64,000 nucleotides of DNA from Otis tarda (taxonomy: Eukaryota > Chordata > Aves > Otidiformes > Otididae), in contig CM048552.1 of NCBI GenBank assembly GCA_026413225.1, positions 27,021,001 to 27,085,000 on the forward strand, read 5' to 3'. Each line of letters starts with the position of its first letter. Position 1 is the first letter of the stretch. Below are positions 10,119 through 63,869 of this stretch, piece by piece. Position numbers and translations under genes: made by a program. The notes below the pieces were generated by a model, which worked only from the letters and a program-made list of their open reading frames with translations, was not told the DNA's origin and did not search any database.

Positions 10119-11265
10119 GTTGGATATTCAATCTACTCATTTCCCAAGCTGTTAAATACCAGCCAGTTTTCAACCTGAAGTTCTATAGCTGCATTAACAT
10201 GGCCTTGTACCAAAACTATAAATGGACCTTAGTAGTGCAAGTTAGTCCATATTGCATCCATCTCAGCTTTGTACCAACACATCCTACTGTTCTGTGGCTT
10301 TCTACAGAATCAACCACCTGTCTTATATACCCAGGGTAGCAGGTGGAAAGAGCATGCTTATATCTATGCAGATAAAAACCCTTAAGTGGATTTCAGTCTC
10401 TGATGGAGCCTACAGTCAAATGCAAGTCATTAATTCTTCTAACAATTAAAAACATAACCCTTATCTCAAGCCTGAGTGTGTATGTTTTCAGCTCCAAGCC
10501 ACTGAGTTTCTCTATAGCTTTCTCAGTGAGTTTCCTTTCAAAAATCTAATTTTTTGATAAATATATATACACACATATATGTGCTTCAAATAATTTACCC
10601 TTCAGTAGACTAAAAATACCAAGTTTCTTTAGCATCTCCTATCAGCTATCATTTGCTGGCTAGCTGACTTCTCACTTTCCTCAGAGAGTGATTTCAGTCT
10701 CCATCAAGCACATTTTCAAAAAAAATACACCCTTAAGTGCCTTCTGTGTGCCTTTGGGAAAAGGTTGGGAAAAGCTCAGCACAAGCACCTGCACACTTGC
10801 CTCATGGTAAAGCTGCTCCATAAGTTTGTCCCTTGCCCCACATCCTTCAGAAATGTTAGACTGCTGATCTTGCATCAGCTCCCTATTTTCTTCTCTCTGT
10901 CATCTGTCTGCCTGAGTCTGTCTACTCTGCCTTGCTCTCAACAGAGTAAATTCGCCTTTTTTCAGGTCTATGCCACCACAGCTAGATTGCTTTGGATCTC
11001 ATTATCCAATGCTTTGTCATCTCATTAAAGGTTAGTGGGGCCATATATGTATTACATTGCATTAAAGCAGTATAAACATAAGGAGTAACTACAAAGTGTA
11101 TTTAATAGTTGTTTTAATAGAAACATCACCTTACTTTTCTTCCACCTACTCCATCTAATCTAATTAAGCAGTGATTTCAATATTCAGCACATGTAAAAGA
11201 AAACCATCAGGTTCAATAAATATCAACTATGCCAAATGTATTCACATACATATTTTTATTCTCCT

Positions 11266-21970: not shown

Positions 21971-22143
21971 TGTTCTGGTTTTGTTAGTGAGGGGGGGCCT
22001 AAGGTGGTAGCTTCTGTAGGAAACTGCTAGAAGTCGTTCCCCTTTGTTTAGTGGACTCGGCCGGGCCTAGGGCGGACCCACTCCTGGCCAAGGCTGAGCC
22101 AATTGGTAGCAGAATGTCCCGTGATAACGCCTCTGCGATAACG

Positions 22144-22151
22144 TATTTAAG
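22144..22151 (+). promoter_or_regulatory. LTR TATA box (TATTTAAG)
   Basis: Identical to the motif in the two young LTR copies (40770-40777 and 42219-42226). It lies about 173 bp from the LTR start, ahead of the GC-rich part. Confidence 0.6.
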
Positions 22152-22426
22152 AACGGGAAAACAGAAAAAAGGAAGAGAGAAGATGTGAAGCAGCCGAGCG
22201 GGGGGCAGAGAGGGGGAGGCACGAGCCTCGTGGGCCTTGCAGGCCTCACCCTCTGGCCTCCCGCCGGGCAGCCGACTGGGCCCAACTCGGCCCAGCCTGG
22301 CTGCAAGAAGTGGAGAGGAGATGAGAAGCAAATAAGATGTAAAAAGGATCCTGAGAGGCATCTGCCAGCCTGTTGTGAGGAACGGCTGCAGACGCCAAGG
22401 TCAGTGAAGAAGGAGGGGGAGGAGTA

Positions 22427-22576
22427 ATGTGGCTCCTGGCCAAGATTCCTCTGCAACTCGTGGTGAAGACCATGGTGGAGCGGGTTGTCCCCCTGCAGCC
22501 CATGGAGGTCCACGGAGGGGCAGAGATCCACCTGCAGTCCGTGGAGGACCCCACGCCGGAGCAGGTGGAGGCCTGA
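22427..22576 (+). CDS. Possible 49-codon LTR-internal reading frame
   Basis: ATG to TGA frame starting MWLLAKIPLQ and ending with a GAG GCC TGA context. The same start, length and stop are present at 41061-41210 and 42510-42659. It lies after the LTR TATA box and before its poly(A) signal, so LTR transcripts would carry it. By eye, the solo and young copies differ at 15 codons, about 4 synonymous and 11 changing. That is not a pattern of protein constraint, and absence of indels over 150 bp is weak evidence. Most likely non-functional. Confidence 0.15.
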   Translation: MWLLAKIPLQLVVKTMVERVVPLQPMEVHGGAEIHLQSVEDPTPEQVEA

Positions 22577-22852
22577 AGGAGGCTGTGGCCCGTGGAGGGC
22601 CTGTGCTGGGGCAGCTGTTCTAGAGGGGCTGCACCCCGTGGAGGAGATGACCCACGCCGGAGCAGTTTCACGAAGGACTGTGGCCCGTGGGAGGGACCCC
22701 ACGCTGGAGCAGAGGAGGAATGCGAGGAGTTCTTCCCCCGACGATGACACAGCAGCATAAAACAACGCGTGATGAACTGACTGCAACCCCCATTCCCTTT
22801 TCCCCCCCCGTGCCGCTCGGGAGGGGAAGGTAGTAGAGATAATATTAAGCCC

Positions 22853-22874
22853 GGGAAGAGGGAGGGGTGGGGGG
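22853..22874 (+). other. G-quadruplex motif in LTR
   Basis: Four G-runs: GGG-AAGA-GGG-A-GGGG-T-GGGGGG. It sits about 43 bp before the poly(A) signal. The young copies keep three long runs, the fourth being broken to GGATGG. Confidence 0.7.
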
Positions 22875-22916
22875 AGGTTATCTTGTTCCCTGTGTCATTC
22901 TCCTGCTAATTTTAGA

Positions 22917-22922
22917 AATAAA
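22917..22922 (+). terminator. LTR poly(A) signal AATAAA
   Basis: Canonical hexamer at the position matching 41548-41553 in the 5' LTR of the young element. Confidence 0.7.
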
Positions 22923-23104
22923 TGAATAGTTTTCCCCAAGTCGAGTCTGTTTTGCCCGTGACGGTAACTTTAAGGATTTCTCCCCGTCCTTATCTCAAAC
23001 CTTGAGCCGATTTTCTTATATCATCTCCCCCTGTTCTCCCGGAGGGTGGGGGGAGCAAGAGGGAGACTGCGTAGTCTGGTCCCGATCAGGGCTGAACTAC
23101 GACA

Positions 23105-39249: not shown

Positions 39250-40398
39250 GCTAGCTGATAATTTTATAAATTATAAAAACTAGAGTAAGAGATTATAACC
39301 TTAAAAACAGGTGCATAACCTACCTTAAAACCAATTAAACTGTTTATAAAGGCAAAAATTACTGATTTATGAAGTTTTAATTAGATTATTACAAACATAT
39401 ACAACTCGGTTTTGAAATCTGGGATGTAGTTTAAGCTATGTATTTTGAATACAGGCATTATGATTGCATGATTCCATGATTTATCGAGGACCTTATCTTT
39501 GTCTTACCTACAATCATTTACAATTGGTAAATTTTAATTCAAACTTCTCATTTATTGTTTTGCTTATTCATGTTTTCTGATGGTGTTGATTTAAGCAGGA
39601 CACTTTGCCTTCAGGCTGTGTTAATTCATGCCCATTTGAGTTATCACAGACCTATAATCATAAATGTGAATTTGTTTTCCCTTGTCTTTGAAGAATTGAT
39701 TTATTACCTGCTCAGTATTTTAGAAATGGTATCAAATTACATGAGATTAATACCATGCATGCACATAGATTGATGGGGTATTTGTGCTTTCATTGATATT
39801 TGGCTTGAGTAGGGAGAAGACAGAGGAATTCTGTATGTGTAATGGAAATGAAGGCACTTAATTGAACAATTATTTGGGGCTATATGCATGTAAACATTGA
39901 TAAATGGTATTTATTAAGTACCTATACGAGCTATTTCATTACTTACCTTATTTTTAGTTCACTACAGGTTCAACTGGCCAGTGAAACACCTGTTAAAGGT
40001 ATAAATTTATGTTCAGCTTTATCATCTCCACTAATTTTAGTTATCTAAAAAATGATGATGCCATAATAAGCTAGTTCTTCAAGCTCCCTTTGTAACTTCT
40101 GGTGAGAATTAGAAAATCTGAAAGGATAATTCATCCCATTCAAAAGTAGGATAATTATAGGTGATATGAATTCCCCTAGAAGGGCATCTCTCTCATGAGT
40201 AACACAGGCTAGATGCTGAAGGCTGAAGTTAATGAAAAGAAACTCCACCTCAAGTCACTTCTTCAATTTCGGAACATACAATTTTGGTCTTTCCAAGCCT
40301 CAACACAGTGTTGTAAGAAGTGAAATGTAACCATAAGTCTTCAAGTTCAGGCAGTAGAAATTTAAAATTATTATAAATTAGGCTGTACCTTGTGACCA
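39250..40398. other. Non-coding stretch, nothing recognised
   Basis: AT-rich sequence up to the nested ERV locus. Bases 40394-40398 (GACCA) are the left target copy of the old LTR. Confidence 0.45.
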
Positions 40399-40596
40399 TG
40401 CTGTAGTTTAGCCCCACTCAGGACCAAGCTACACAGTCTCTCTCACTCCCCCCACCCTCCGAGGGAATAGGGAGAGATAATATGAGAAAAAAGGCTCAAG
40501 GTTTGAGATAAGGACAAGGAAAGATCCTTAAGGTTACCGTTACAGGCAAAACAGACTCGACTTGGGATAAACTATTTGTTTATTATTAAAACCAAA
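40399..40596 (-). mobile_element. Old family T solo LTR, 3' (U5-side) part, split by a later insertion
   Basis: The reverse complement runs from an AATAAA signal (plus-strand 40579-40584) through GTCGAGTCTGTTTTGCC, TTATCTCAAACCTTGAGCC and the LTR terminus GGGGCTAAACTACAGCA. This is the 3' end of family T with clear divergence. Its other half resumes at 43192. The rejoined length would be about 1,106 bp, close to a full family T LTR. The outer flanks are GACCA (40394-40398) and GACTA (44100-44104), a 4-of-5 target duplication. Nothing internal remains between the two halves except the younger element. Confidence 0.92.
40592..40596. repeat. Target-site duplication CCAAA, left copy
   Basis: Identical to 43187-43191 on the far side of the young element. 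It lies inside the older LTR. Confidence 0.9.
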
Positions 40597-40769
40597 TGTC
40601 GTGGTTTTGTTAGTGAGGGGGGGCCTAAGGTGGTAGCTTCTGCAGGAAACTGCTAGAAGTCGCTCCCCTTTGTTCAGTGGACTCGGCCAGGCCTAGGGCG
40701 GACCTGCTGCTGGCCAAGGTCGAGCGGATTGGTAGCAGAATGTCCCGTGATAACGCCTCTGCGATAACG

Positions 40770-40777
40770 TATTTAAG
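40770..40777 (+). promoter_or_regulatory. TATA box of the 5' LTR
   Basis: TATTTAAG, conserved in all readable family T copies. It is the likely promoter of the mini-ERV transcript. Confidence 0.6.
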
Positions 40778-41060
40778 AAGGGGAAAACAGAGAAAAAAAG
40801 AGAGAAGAGAAGATGTGAAGAAGCTGAGCGGGGGCAGAGGCGCAGAGGGGGAGGCGCAGGCCTCCTGGGCCTTGCAGGCCTCACCCTCTGGCCTCTTGCC
40901 AGGTGGCCGACTGGGCCCGACTCGGCCCGGCCCGGCTGCGAGAAGTGGAGAGGAGATGAGAAGTGAATAAGATGTAAAAAGATCCTGAGAGACATCTACC
41001 AGCCTGTTGTGAGGAACGGCTGCAGACGCCAAGGTCAGTTCAGAAGGAGGGGGAGGAGTA

Positions 41061-41210
41061 ATGCGGCTCCTGGCCAAGATTCCCCTGCAGCCTGTGGTGA
41101 CGACCATGGTGGAGCAGGTTGTCCCCCTGCAGCCCATGGAGGTCCACGGAGGAGCAGAGATCCACTTGGAGCCCGTGAAGGACCCCGTACCGGGGGAGGT
41201 GGATGCCTGA
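41061..41210 (+). CDS. Possible 49-codon LTR-internal frame (5' LTR copy)
   Basis: Begins MRLLAKIPLQ and stops at TGA 41208-41210. It is identical to the frame in the 3' LTR (42510-42659) and homologous to 22427-22576. The old split LTR also keeps this frame open through the equivalent segment but reads on past the stop. No known domain; substitutions look neutral. Confidence 0.15.
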   Translation: MRLLAKIPLQPVVTTMVEQVVPLQPMEVHGGAEIHLEPVKDPVPGEVDA

Positions 41211-41547
41211 AGGCAGCTGTGGCCCGTGGAGGGCCCGCTGGGACAGCTGTTCTGGAGAGACTGTACTCCGTGGAAGAGATGACCCACGCCGGAGCAGTTC
41301 CACGAAGGACTGTGGCCCGTGGGAGGGACCCCACGATGGAGCAGGGGAGGAATGTGAGGAGTTCTTCCCCCGACCATGAAGCAGCGGCATGAAACAACGT
41401 ATGATGAACTGACTGCAACCCCCATTCCCTCTTCCCCCCTGTGCCGCTCGGGGGGGGAAGGTAGTAGAGATAATGTTAAGCTTGGGAAGAGGGAGGGGTG
41501 GATGGAGGTTATCTTGTTCTCTGTCTCATTATCCTGCTGTTTGTAGT

Positions 41548-41553
41548 AATAAA
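41548..41553 (+). terminator. Poly(A) signal AATAAA of the 5' LTR
   Basis: Canonical hexamer. The same site in the 3' LTR (42998-43003) reads AGTAAA, a weaker variant. Confidence 0.7.
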
Positions 41554-41743
41554 TGAATAGTTTTCCCCAAGTCGAGTCTGTTTTGCCCGTGACGGTAACT
41601 TTAAGGATTTCTCCCTGTCCTTATCTCAAACCTCGAGCCGTTTTTCCTTATATTTTCTCTCCCTGTTCTCTCGGAGGGTGGGGGGAGTGAGAGAGAGACT
41701 GCGTAGTCTGGTCCTGATCAGGGCTGAACTACGACAGTTATTT

Positions 41744-41761
41744 TGGCGCCCAACGTGGGGC
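41744..41761 (+). promoter_or_regulatory. Primer-binding site, tRNA-Lys type
   Basis: TGGCGCCCAACGTGGGGC lies 7 nt after the 5' LTR end. It matches the 18-nt sequence complementary to the 3' end of tRNA-Lys(1,2) used by several retroviruses, recalled from general knowledge. It marks the first-strand priming site and confirms plus-strand orientation. Confidence 0.93.
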
Positions 41762-41804
41762 TCGAGGAATTTGAGATAAGGATTGAGTTTAATTGGGAGC
41801 GGTA

Positions 41805-41936
41805 ATGGGCAAAACAGGGATTGAACTTGACAAAAGAGCAAAATGATTAGGGGAAAATTTATGTTCTGATTGTGGTGAAGGGATAAGTGGTGAATTGTGT
41901 GTAAATTGCCTGGTATATCCACAGTTGGTGTTTTGA
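41805..41936 (+). pseudogene. Broken gag-like leader frame with CxxC-x8-CxxC
   Basis: An ATG at 41805 opens a frame whose second residue is Gly, as in myristoylated Gag proteins. It meets a TGA at 41844-41846 after 13 codons. The same frame then stays open to TGA 41934-41936 and contains two Cys pairs, CSDC (41862-41873) and CVNC (41898-41909), spaced CxxC-x8-CxxC like a small zinc-binding unit. This is unlike the CCHC knuckle of retroviral nucleocapsid. Whether it derives from gag, from captured sequence or from chance is undecided. I regard it as non-functional because of the stop. Confidence 0.4.
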
Positions 41937-42030
41937 GGATATTATTTTGATTCTTGGTGCTGGGAATTCTTTTTCTTTTCTGTTGATGTGTGTGTATTTT
42001 AATTAGAATTCTTAAATACGTAATTCGCAG

Positions 42031-42045
42031 AGGCAAGGGGTGGAA
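42031..42045 (+). promoter_or_regulatory. Polypurine tract before the 3' LTR
   Basis: AGGCAAGGGGTGGAA abuts the 3' LTR start. It is purine-rich with one C and one T, and in the position where second-strand priming occurs in retroviruses. Confidence 0.8.
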
Positions 42046-43186
42046 TGTCGTGGTTTTGTTAGTGAGGGGGGGCCTAAGGTGGTAGCTTCTGCAGGAAACT
42101 GCTAGAAGTCGCTCCCCTTTGTTCAGTGGACTCGGCCAGGCCTAGGGCGGACCTGCTGCTGGCCAAGGTCGAGCGGATTGGTAGCAGAATGTCCCGTGAT
42201 AACGCCTCTGCGATAACGTATTTAAGAAGGGGAAAACAGAGAAAAAAAGAGAGAAGAGAAGATGTGAAGAAGCTGAGCGGGGGCAGAGGCGCAGAGGGGG
42301 AGGCGCAGGCCTCCTGGGCCTTGCAGGCCTCACCCTCTGGCCTCTTGCCAGGTGGCCGACTGGGCCCGACTCGGCCCGGCCCGGCTGCGAGAAGTGGAGA
42401 GGAGATGAGAAGTGAATAAGATGTAAAAAGATCCTGAGAGACATCTACCAGCCTGTTGAGAGGAACGGCTGCAGACGCCAAGGTCAGTTCAGAAGGAGGG
42501 GGAGGAGTAATGCGGCTCCTGGCCAAGATTCCCCTGCAGCCTGTGGTGACGACCATGGTGGAGCAGGTTGTCCCCCTGCAGCCCATGGAGGTCCACGGAG
42601 GAGCAGAGATCCACTTGGAGCCCGTGAAGGACCCCGTACCGGGGGAGGTGGATGCCTGAAGGCAGCTGTGGCCCGTGGAGGGCCCGCTGGGACAGCTGTT
42701 CTGGAGAGACTGTACTCCGTGGAAGAGATGACCCACGCCGGAGCAGTTCCACGAAGGACTGTGGCCCGTGGGAGGGACCCCACGATGGAGCAGGGGAGGA
42801 ATGTGAGGAGTTCTTCCCCCGACCATGAAGCAGCGGCATGAAACAACGTATGATGAACTGACTGCAACCCCCATTCCCTCTTCCCCCCTGTGCCGCTCGG
42901 GGGGGGGAAGGTAGTAGAGATAATGTTAAGCTTGGGAAGAGGGAGGGGTGGATGGAGGTTATCTTGTTCTCTGTCTCATTATCCTGCTGTTTGTAGTAGT
43001 AAATGAATAGTTTTCCCCAAGTCGAGTCTGTTTTGCCCGTGACGGTAACTTTAAGGATTTCTCCCTGTCCTTATCTCAAACCTCGAGCCGTTTTTCCTTA
43101 TATTTTCTCTCCCTGTTCTCTCGGAGGGTGGGGGGAGTGAGAGAGAGACTGCGTAGTCTGGTCCTGATCAGGGCTGAACTACGACA
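42046..43186 (+). repeat. 3' LTR of the mini-ERV
   Basis: Nearly identical to the 5' LTR. It carries the derived bases at both substitutions (A at 42459, G at 42999), judged against the solo LTR at 21971. The second changes the poly(A) hexamer to AGTAAA. TATA box at 42219-42226. The same small sense frame (42510-42659) and antisense frame (42874-42074) recur; neither is supported as a gene. Confidence 0.96.
42998..43003 (+). terminator. Altered poly(A) signal AGTAAA in the 3' LTR
   Basis: Homologous to AATAAA in the 5' LTR and in the solo LTR; A-to-G at 42999. This is the copy that would end the element's own transcript. Confidence 0.65.
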
Positions 43187-44099
43187 CCAAAGTAGGATAA
43201 CGAGAAAGAGAACAAGATAACTTCCCCCCTACACCTCCCTCTTCCCAGGCTTAACATTATCTCTTCCTCCTTCCCCCCTCCCCGAGCGGCACAGGAGGGA
43301 AGAGGGAGTGGGGGTTATGGTCAGTCTATTACATGTTGCTTTACACCGCTCCTTCTTTCTCGGGGGAAGAACTCCTCACATTCCTCCCCTGCTCCAGCAT
43401 GAGGCCCTTCCCACGGGCTACAGTTCTTCGTGAAACTGCTCTGGCATAGGTCATTTTTTTTTTCCACAGGATGCGGTCCCTCTGGAACAGCTGCCCCAAC
43501 ACGGGCCCTCCACAGGCCACAGCCTCCTTCAGGCATCCGCCTGCCCCAACATGGGGCAGATGGATCTCTGCTCCTCTGTGGGCCTCTATGGGCTGCAGGG
43601 GCACAGCCGGCCTCACCATGGGCTCCATGGGAATCTCTGCCAGGAGCAGCATTACTCCTCCCCCTCCTTCTTCACTGACCTTGGTGTCTGCAGCCATTCC
43701 TCTCACAAGAAATTCTTCACAACAGGCTGGCAGACACCTCTCAGGTTTTCTTCACATCTCCTCTCTCCACTTCTTGCAGTTGGGCAGGGTCAAGTCGGGC
43801 CCAGTCAGTGGCCTGGTGGGAGGCCAGAGGGTGAGGCCTACAAGGCTCACACCTCCCCCTCTCTCTCCCCACTCCAGCTTCTTCACATATTCTCTTCTTT
43901 TTTCCTGCTTTTCCCCTTCTTAAATACATTATCACAGAGGTGTTATCAGGGAACATTCTGCTACCAACTGGCTCGGCCCTGGTCAGCAGCCGGTCCACCC
44001 TAAGCCCAGCTGAATCCACTGAACAAAGGGGAAACACCTTTTAGCAGCTTCTTGCAGAAGCTACCACTGTAGCTCTCCTCACTCAAGAAAACCAGGACA
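43187..44099 (-). mobile_element. Old family T solo LTR, 5' (U3/R) part, after the nested insertion
   Basis: Begins with the right CCAAA target copy (43187-43191). It continues as the reverse complement of family T from the segment before the poly(A) signal back to the LTR start, TGTCCTGGTTTTCTTGAG (44099 leftwards). TATA-region homologue near 43917-43926 (TTAAATACA on the plus strand). It is clearly more diverged than the young LTRs, with many small indels. The right outer flank GACTA pairs with GACCA at 40394-40398. Confidence 0.92.
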
Positions 44100-44218
44100 G
44101 ACTAGAAGTTGGCCCTTATCATGACTACAGTTATGAACCCACTATTAAATTCCTACCCACTTCCCTAACCCAGACAGCAGCCAGCCAGACGTGTGGGGTG
44201 GAGTTGTCCACTGGCTCA

Positions 44219-46559: not shown

Positions 46560-46905
46560 TTTGAATTATCATGGAATCATAGAATGGTTTGGGTTGGAAG
46601 GGACCTTTAAGGTCATCTAGTCCAACTCCCCTGCAAGGAGCAGGGACATCTTCAGCTAGATCAGGTTGCTCAGAGCCACATCCAACCTGGCCTTGAACAT
46701 CTCCTGTCTTCGTAGGAGAGGTGCTCCAGCCCTCTGATCCTCTTCGTGGCCCTCCTCTGGACTTGCTCCAATGGGTTCATGTCCTTCTTGTGCTGGGGAC
46801 TGCAGAGCTGGCCATAGTACTCCAGGTGGGGTCTCACAACAGAGGAATAGAGAGGAATTAGGATTTGGTTGTTCACCACTGGTGAAGGGCACTGAGTGCC
46901 CACTA
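46560..46905 (-). pseudogene. CR1 LINE fragment with an internal deletion
   Basis: The left part (CATAGAATGGTTTGGGTTGG, AAGGGACCTTTAAGGTCATC) is the CR1 3' UTR read on the minus strand. The right part encodes, on the minus strand, SSVVRPHLEYYGQL and EQVQRRATKRIRGLEHLSYE, the C-terminal part of CR1 reverse transcriptase. The usual remaining C-terminal codons between SYE(E/D)R and the UTR are missing, with the two parts joined near 46695-46710. The right limit is approximate (recognisable CR1 ends near 46865). Confidence 0.9.
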
Positions 46906-63830: not shown

Positions 63831-63869
63831 TACCACCTTAGGCCCCCCCTCACTAACAAAACCACGACA
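63831..63869 (-). mobile_element. Isolated 39-bp tip of a family T LTR
   Basis: The reverse complement of 63869-63831 is identical over 39 bp to the first 39 bases of the young LTRs (40597-40635), including the 7-G run. Similarity stops abruptly at 63830. The right side is a natural LTR end, the left side a breakpoint. The rest of the LTR is not present in the window to the left, and only 131 bp remain to the right. Confidence 0.85.

What the first reader, a model, noticed from the sequence alone, without database searches (positions are those of the whole stretch)
40597..43186. Mini-ERV with intact cis signals but almost no interior
Seen: two near-identical 1.14-kb LTRs, a tRNA-Lys-type primer-binding site 7 nt after the 5' LTR, a polypurine tract touching the 3' LTR, perfect 5-bp flanking duplications, and only 309 bp between the LTRs. 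Known: retroviral reverse transcription needs the LTR ends, primer site and polypurine tract in cis, while proteins can act in trans. Inference: this may be a non-autonomous, trans-mobilised ERV family, similar in logic to TRIM/LARD elements, and still young.
Basis: partly seen in the sequence, partly recalled or inferred. Interest (0 to 1): 0.75.

Follow-up and report, generated by a model that had tools for sequence, protein, structure and literature searches.

The report
Young coding-free mini endogenous retrovirus
A recently inserted retrovirus-like element carries the DNA signals needed for copying but no genes, so it probably moved using another element's proteins; whether it is one of a family or a one-off could not be tested here.

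Summary
Two 1.14-kb LTRs (2 substitutions and one G-run indel apart) enclose 309 bp with a perfect tRNA-Lys1,2-type primer site, a short imperfect polypurine tract and a perfect 5-bp target duplication. The element sits inside an older antisense LTR of the same lineage. A solo relative (91%) lies 17.5 kb upstream, and a 39-bp LTR stub lies near the window end.

The leader pairs with U5 around the primer site, as in retroviral packaging leaders; the stretch before the polypurine tract pairs with the U3 TATA region. Both beat all shuffles tried. No sense frame is open, and the LTR divergence is too small for the stops to have arisen after insertion.

Best reading: a non-autonomous mini-ERV, short already when it integrated and mobilised in trans. 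A multi-copy family is possible but unshown: all 21 requests to search the home genome did not complete, and the collections that did answer (microbial and viral) could not settle it. Deletion after insertion remains a live rival. Trans-mobilised ERVs (ETn/MusD, bovine ERVK D-type) are known, so this is a new member of a known kind.

The parts
40592..40596 (.). Target-site duplication, left copy (CCAAA)
43187..43191 (.). Target-site duplication, right copy (CCAAA)
40597..41736 (+). 5' LTR, 1140 bp; TATTTAA at LTR position 174, AATAAA at 952
42046..43186 (+). 3' LTR, 1141 bp; poly(A) signal reads AGTAAA here (42998-43003)
41737..42045 (+). 309-bp interior, GC 39% (LTR 57%), stops in all three sense frames; one antisense frame is open through it (171 aa stop to stop, no Pfam match)
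41744..41761 (+). Primer-binding site, 18/18 to the recalled tRNA-Lys1,2 complement, 7 nt after the LTR
41618..41639 (+). U5 arm pairing with the leader (LTR positions 1022-1043)
41759..41782 (+). Leader arm: reverse complement of U5 1022-1043, one 2-nt bulge
   Evidence: score 37, best of 500 shuffles 29
41578..41588 (+). U5 arm (LTR 982-992) that can pair with the ATG region
41805..41846 (+). ATG-led 13-codon reading frame; 41807-41817 (from the G of the ATG) is complementary to U5 982-992
   Evidence: the 11-nt match alone (score 22) is within the shuffle range
42009..42034 (+). Pre-PPT arm: reverse complement of the U3 TATA region (LTR 159-183), one mismatch and one indel
   Evidence: score 40, best of 500 shuffles 29
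42204..42228 (+). U3 TATA-region arm in the 3' LTR that pairs with the pre-PPT arm
42035..42045 (+). Short polypurine tract AAGGGGTGGAA touching the 3' LTR, 10 of 11 purines
40399..40596 (-). 3' part of the older antisense LTR into which the element inserted
43192..44099 (-). 5' part of the older antisense LTR; its own duplication is GACCA (40394-40398) / GACTA (44100-44104), 4 of 5
21971..23104 (+). Related solo LTR, 90.8% identical outside gaps, duplication ACAAT on both sides

Best explanation
A young, gene-free ERV of a presumably avian lineage making 5-bp target duplications (ERVL-like by that criterion). Proposed steps: (1) the LTR promoter makes a short RNA, about 2.2 kb if it starts about 30 nt after the TATA box; (2) U5 folds with the leader around the primer site, giving the RNA a retroviral packaging-type leader; (3) it is packaged in particles made by a full-length relative; (4) it is reverse-transcribed from tRNA-Lys1,2 and the polypurine tract; (5) the helper's integrase inserted it, here into an old antisense LTR. 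The ends, primer site, duplication, nesting, lack of open sense frames and sequence complementarity are shown. The transcription, folding in vivo, packaging, helper and shortness at the time of integration are inferred. Membership in a multi-copy family is untested (I give it about 0.4; a one-off about 0.22).
For: Complete cis set with exact integration marks. Two substitutions over 1140 bp predict about 0.27 substitutions per 309 bp of interior in one copy (my arithmetic), yet all three sense frames carry several stops, so the interior was non-coding when inserted. U5:leader duplex -75.5 kcal/mol against -45.7 (sd 4.8) for 300 shuffles, best shuffle -65.6; pre-PPT:U3 duplex -50.1 against -20.8 (sd 4.1) for 300 shuffles, best shuffle -35.9. 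Local folds z -6.3 and -4.1 against 100 shuffles each. The U5 of the solo and the older LTR still pairs with this leader better than most randomly mutated controls carrying the LTR-wide number of changes (34 of 500 and 5 of 500 as stable). Retroviral packaging leaders contain U5/Gag long-range pairings (PMC4264320, passages). Trans-mobilised ERVs are established (PMC7472051 and PMC10924933, passages); ETn and MusD share LTR sequence and primer.
Against: No second copy of the interior was seen; the window has one and the genome search did not complete. A clean DNA deletion between leader and 3' UTR would look the same. Controls that gave little or no support for constraint: with only the same number of random changes as observed, 102 of 500 (solo) and 49 of 500 (older) were as stable for U5; for the pre-PPT:U3 arm 46 (observed number of changes) and 36 (LTR-wide number) of 500 in the solo, and 196 and 170 of 500 in the older LTR; identity of the U5 segment to the solo LTR is not significantly raised (Fisher p 0.11) (all). 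The 11-nt match at the ATG is not above shuffles on its own (score 22), nor is the rest of the left arm (64 of 1000). The pairing tests followed from seeing inverted repeats, so they are partly post hoc.
Confidence: 0.62

Rival explanations
1. A full-length provirus integrated here and later lost gag-pol(-env) by a local DNA deletion. The element was never mobile in its short form.
For: Common fate of ERVs (general knowledge). All interior sequence could be leader plus 3' untranslated region, so the absence of open frames would follow from where the deletion fell. No second copy known.
Against: The element is young (about 0.18-0.46 My under assumed rates of 5e-9 to 1.9e-9), which leaves little time. 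The usual loss is LTR-LTR recombination to a solo LTR, as at 21971-23104, not a deletion that spares leader and pre-PPT arm ('usual' from PMC6523648, passages).
Confidence: 0.25
2. One-off: the deletion arose in viral RNA or during reverse transcription of this single copy, which then integrated with helper proteins but founded no family. This is a sub-case of the best explanation, and its weight is counted there.
For: Fits all anatomy seen. Deleted genomes are a known by-product of retroviral reverse transcription (general knowledge).
Against: Nothing direct; the genome search was unanswered.
Confidence: 0.22
3. Assembly artefact: a longer provirus collapsed onto a short interior between near-identical LTRs.
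For: Near-identical 1.1-kb repeats are hard to assemble. A 39-bp exact stub of the LTR start at 63831-63869 (minus) hints that assembly around LTRs of this family may be imperfect.
Against: No Ns. The two LTRs are not letter-for-letter copies. Primer site, polypurine tract and both complementarity arms sit where an intact interior would have them.
Confidence: 0.06
4. The interior is a degenerate inverted LTR, not a leader plus 3' UTR. Both its ends match the reverse complement of the LTR in order.
For: Collinear inverted matches at 41759-41782 and 42009-42034.
Against: Outside those arms homology is little or no better than shuffles: 64, 213 and 254 of 1000 shuffles reach the observed scores for left arm, right arm and middle. 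The order also follows from nesting of two local hairpins. GC is 39% against 57%.
Confidence: 0.04

Closest known systems
ETn (mobilised by MusD), mouse
   Same: Non-coding, LTRs and tRNA-Lys primer shared with a coding helper, mobilised in trans (PMC7472051, passages; a switch of ETn to Lys1,2 is also described there).
   Different: Mouse betaretrovirus-like elements. By recall ETn interiors are kilobases of unrelated sequence, here 309 bp. No helper has been identified here.
Bovine ERVK[2-1-LTR] D-type (helper: C-type)
   Same: Defective ERVs lacking functional genes that dominate new insertions through trans-complementation (PMC10924933, passages).
   Different: D-type is about 6.8 kb; this element is 2.59 kb with 309 bp between the LTRs.
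TRIM / LARD elements (plants, ant, Echinococcus)
   Same: Small non-autonomous LTR elements (papers seen only as search listing with abstract starts).
   Different: By general knowledge TRIMs are mostly under about 1 kb in all with LTRs of 100-250 bp, and LARDs have long interiors. Here the LTRs are 1.14 kb and retroviral, the interior tiny.
Avian ERVL families such as TguERVL2 (songbirds)
   Same: 5-bp target duplication, the criterion for ERVL/ERV3 in PMC6523648 (passages); recent activity; most copies solo LTRs.
   Different: The TguERVL2_I_Ucy consensus there is about 6.4 kb with pol domains.

Membership tests
LTR retroelement / endogenous retrovirus | Paired LTRs with TG...CA ends, primer site, polypurine tract, target duplication | tested here: met
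   polypurine tract short and imperfect
ERVL (ERV3) by bird-annotation criterion | 5-bp target-site duplication | tested here: met
   Perfect 5 bp at this element and at the solo LTR; 4 of 5 at the older LTR. Criterion from PMC6523648
ERVL (ERV3) by phylogeny | pol groups with ERVL | not testable with these tools
   No pol in the element; home genome not searchable
Non-autonomous trans-mobilised ERV family | No coding capacity | tested here: met
   Sense frames closed. Pfam on two sense pieces gave no match above cut-off, best DZR E 0.013; the open antisense frame gave none
Non-autonomous trans-mobilised ERV family | Several loci with the same short interior | not testable with these tools
   Genome search unanswered; one copy in the window
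Non-autonomous trans-mobilised ERV family | Coding partner with same LTR and primer site | not testable with these tools
   Genome search unanswered; no second primer site in the window
TRIM | Very short LTRs (about 100-250 bp, recalled) and total length under about 1 kb | tested here: not met
   LTRs 1140/1141 bp, total 2590 bp

The most novel reading that the evidence does not exclude
A bird ERVL-like lineage has produced a mobile family reduced to cis signals. Over a quarter of its interior (87 of 309 bp) is primer site, polypurine tract and stretches complementary to the LTRs (U5:leader:ATG at the 5' end, pre-PPT:U3 at the 3' end). It would be a natural minimal retroviral replicon and parasite of a full-length helper.
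Probability: 0.36. Interest if true: 0.62.

Novelty: new member of a known kind. Interest (0 to 1): 0.36.

Why it matters
If mini copies recur, the 309-bp interior defines from nature how little an ERV needs besides its LTRs to be copied in trans. It would also give birds an ERV helper-parasite pair to set beside MusD/ETn and the bovine C/D types, where defective copies are proposed to contribute to the demise of the active element (PMC10924933, passages). If it is a lone deletion, it is an ordinary, if neat, ERV remnant.

Tried and rejected
Home-genome copy search: 21 identical requests, none answered. Relatives elsewhere: exact patterns from LTR start, leader and primer site in viral contigs, LTR end and interior in prokaryote genomes, and blastn of 5' LTR plus interior (1449 bases) against phage records: no match in any. 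These collections are hardly expected to hold bird DNA.

Inverted-LTR origin of the interior: considered after and rejected, because homology beyond the two arms does not clearly exceed shuffles. Protein remnants: 8 of the 23 ORFs (the 8 outside LTRs) and two sense pieces of the interior were scanned against Pfam; only sub-threshold matches (IL7 E 0.014 at 10633-11025; DZR E 0.013 and zf-dskA_traR E 0.14 on one interior piece). The antisense frame open through the interior matched nothing. The other 14 ORFs, all overlapping LTRs, were not scanned. tRNA and Rfam scans of the window: nothing.

Literature for a described bird mini-ERV: the listings (titles and abstract starts; one search listed 15 of 71 papers, one search found none) showed no such element to me. 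The library lacks most subscription journals, so this is weak evidence of absence.

Full report
Observation. The element runs from 40597 to 43186, with a 5-bp duplication CCAAA on both sides. The LTRs are 1140 and 1141 bp. They differ at 41010/42459 (T/A) and 41549/42999 (A/G) and by one G in a G run. At both substituted sites the solo relative agrees with the 5' LTR. The interior is 309 bp. The primer site 41744-41761 matches the recalled tRNA-Lys1,2 complement in 18 of 18 positions, against 13 of 18 for Lys3. Only 2 of 100 shuffles of the window hold even a three-mismatch match. The polypurine tract is AAGGGGTGGAA, shorter and less pure than the finding suggests. There are no Ns in the window.

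Setting. The element lies inside an older antisense LTR of the same lineage (40399-40596 and 43192-44099; 85% and 76% identical in the two BLAST pieces), whose own duplication is GACCA/GACTA. A solo LTR at 21971-23104 is 90.8% identical outside gaps and has duplication ACAAT. Thus two of three integrations show perfect 5-bp duplications and the oldest shows 4 of 5. By the criterion used for songbirds this is ERVL/ERV3 (PMC6523648, passages). A CR1-type 3' end at 46570-46585 (one mismatch; octamer) agrees with a bird or reptile genome; the species is not known to me.

Age. Two substitutions in 1140 bp give about 0.18-0.46 million years for assumed neutral rates of 5e-9 to 1.9e-9 per site and year (rates recalled, not measured here). 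The same load predicts about 0.27 substitutions for the interior, so the stops found in all sense frames were almost surely present when it inserted.

New anatomy. Searching the interior against the reverse complement of the LTR gave two matches well above 500 shuffles (best 29): 42009-42034 with LTR 159-183 (score 40) and 41759-41782 with LTR 1022-1043 (score 37). The first pairs the stretch before the polypurine tract with the U3 TATA region. The second pairs the end of the primer site and the leader with U5. An 11-nt exact match at an ATG (41807-41817 with LTR 982-992) lies in register with it, but with score 22 is not significant alone. Folding 41560-41860 gave -126.5 kcal/mol against -90.3 (sd 5.8); folding 41990-42260 gave -96.2 against -78.4 (sd 4.4); 100 shuffles each. 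Duplex energies were -75.5 and -50.1, beyond all 300 shuffles in each case. Among LTR windows of 91 nt the best partners are the expected ones: for the leader, the window from 946 at -66.3, next the window from 496 at -55.5; for the pre-PPT, the window from 136 at -51.5, next the window from 406 at -41.4. U5/Gag long-range pairing is a feature of the MMTV packaging leader, and similar ones are said to exist in a number of other retroviruses (PMC4264320, passages).

Is the pairing under constraint? Only partly shown. Identity of the U5 stretch 982-1043 is 60 of 62 to the solo and 55 of 62 to the older LTR; the U3 stretch 159-183 is 25 of 25 and 22 of 25. The excess for U5 to the solo is not significant (Fisher p 0.11, totals). 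Against random mutants with the LTR-wide number of changes, the U5 of the solo LTR (34 of 500 as stable) and of the older LTR (5 of 500) keep the pairing. Against mutants with only the observed number of changes the figures are 102 and 49 of 500. For the pre-PPT:U3 arm they are 36 (LTR-wide number) and 46 (observed number) of 500 in the solo, weak support, and 170 and 196 of 500 in the older LTR, no support. The partner tested is this element's leader or pre-PPT stretch, since the other copies have no interior. Promoter and U5 function could also conserve these stretches.

Could the interior be an inverted LTR? Its two ends match the inverted LTR in order, but outside the two arms the resemblance is not clearly above chance (64, 213 and 254 of 1000 shuffles as good). 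Two hairpins, one at each end, explain the order equally well. I hold it at about 4%.

Mechanism. The anatomy is that of a natural minimal retroviral genome: promoter, R/U5, packaging-type leader, primer site, polypurine tract, U3 and integrase-recognisable ends. Proteins must have come from elsewhere if it was short when it integrated. That last step is inferred. The alternative, a local deletion after integration, is not excluded, because leader plus 3' untranslated sequence is what such a deletion could leave.

What is known. Trans-mobilised defective ERVs are well documented: ETn by MusD, bovine ERVK D-type by C-type, and others listed in PMC10924933 (passages; PMC7472051, passages). TRIMs work similarly but have much shorter LTRs (recalled; papers seen as listing). 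So the principle is not new. A bird family with such a short interior would be a new member; the paper searches named under Tried and rejected listed none that I could recognise.

Limits. The home-genome search that would decide family against singleton did not complete in 21 attempts (last). Collections that answered hold prokaryotes, phages and viral contigs, so their blanks carry almost no weight.

Noticed in passing
63831-63869 (minus strand): A 39-bp exact copy of the young LTR's first 39 bases, beginning at the TG terminus and ending abruptly in unrelated sequence. It is either a recent LTR insertion cut short by deletion or an assembly remnant of a heterozygous insertion.
   Followed up: partly
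42998-43003: The poly(A) signal AATAAA of the 5' LTR reads AGTAAA in the 3' LTR. Since the related solo LTR has AATAAA, this is probably a change after insertion that may weaken 3'-end formation of this copy's RNA.
   Followed up: partly
41737-41743: Seven bases separate the LTR end from the primer site. Most retroviruses, as I recall, have about two, so integrase or another nuclease would have to trim seven bases from the U5 end.
   Followed up: no
21971-23104, 40399-44104, 63831-63869: Four footprints of one LTR lineage in 64 kb (solo LTR, older antisense LTR, nested mini-ERV, stub), which suggests a family that is abundant and long active in this genome.
   Followed up: partly
46570-46585 (minus strand): CR1-type 3' terminal octamer repeat, one mismatch, as expected in a bird or reptile genome.
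   Followed up: no
41847-41933: An interior frame without a start reads with a CxxC...CxxC spacing and gives a sub-threshold zinc-ribbon match (Pfam DZR, E 0.013); probably chance in a 29-residue piece.
   Followed up: partly
41626-42141 (minus strand): One antisense frame is open through the whole interior and into both LTRs (171 aa, stop to stop); no Pfam match, presumably chance.
   Followed up: partly
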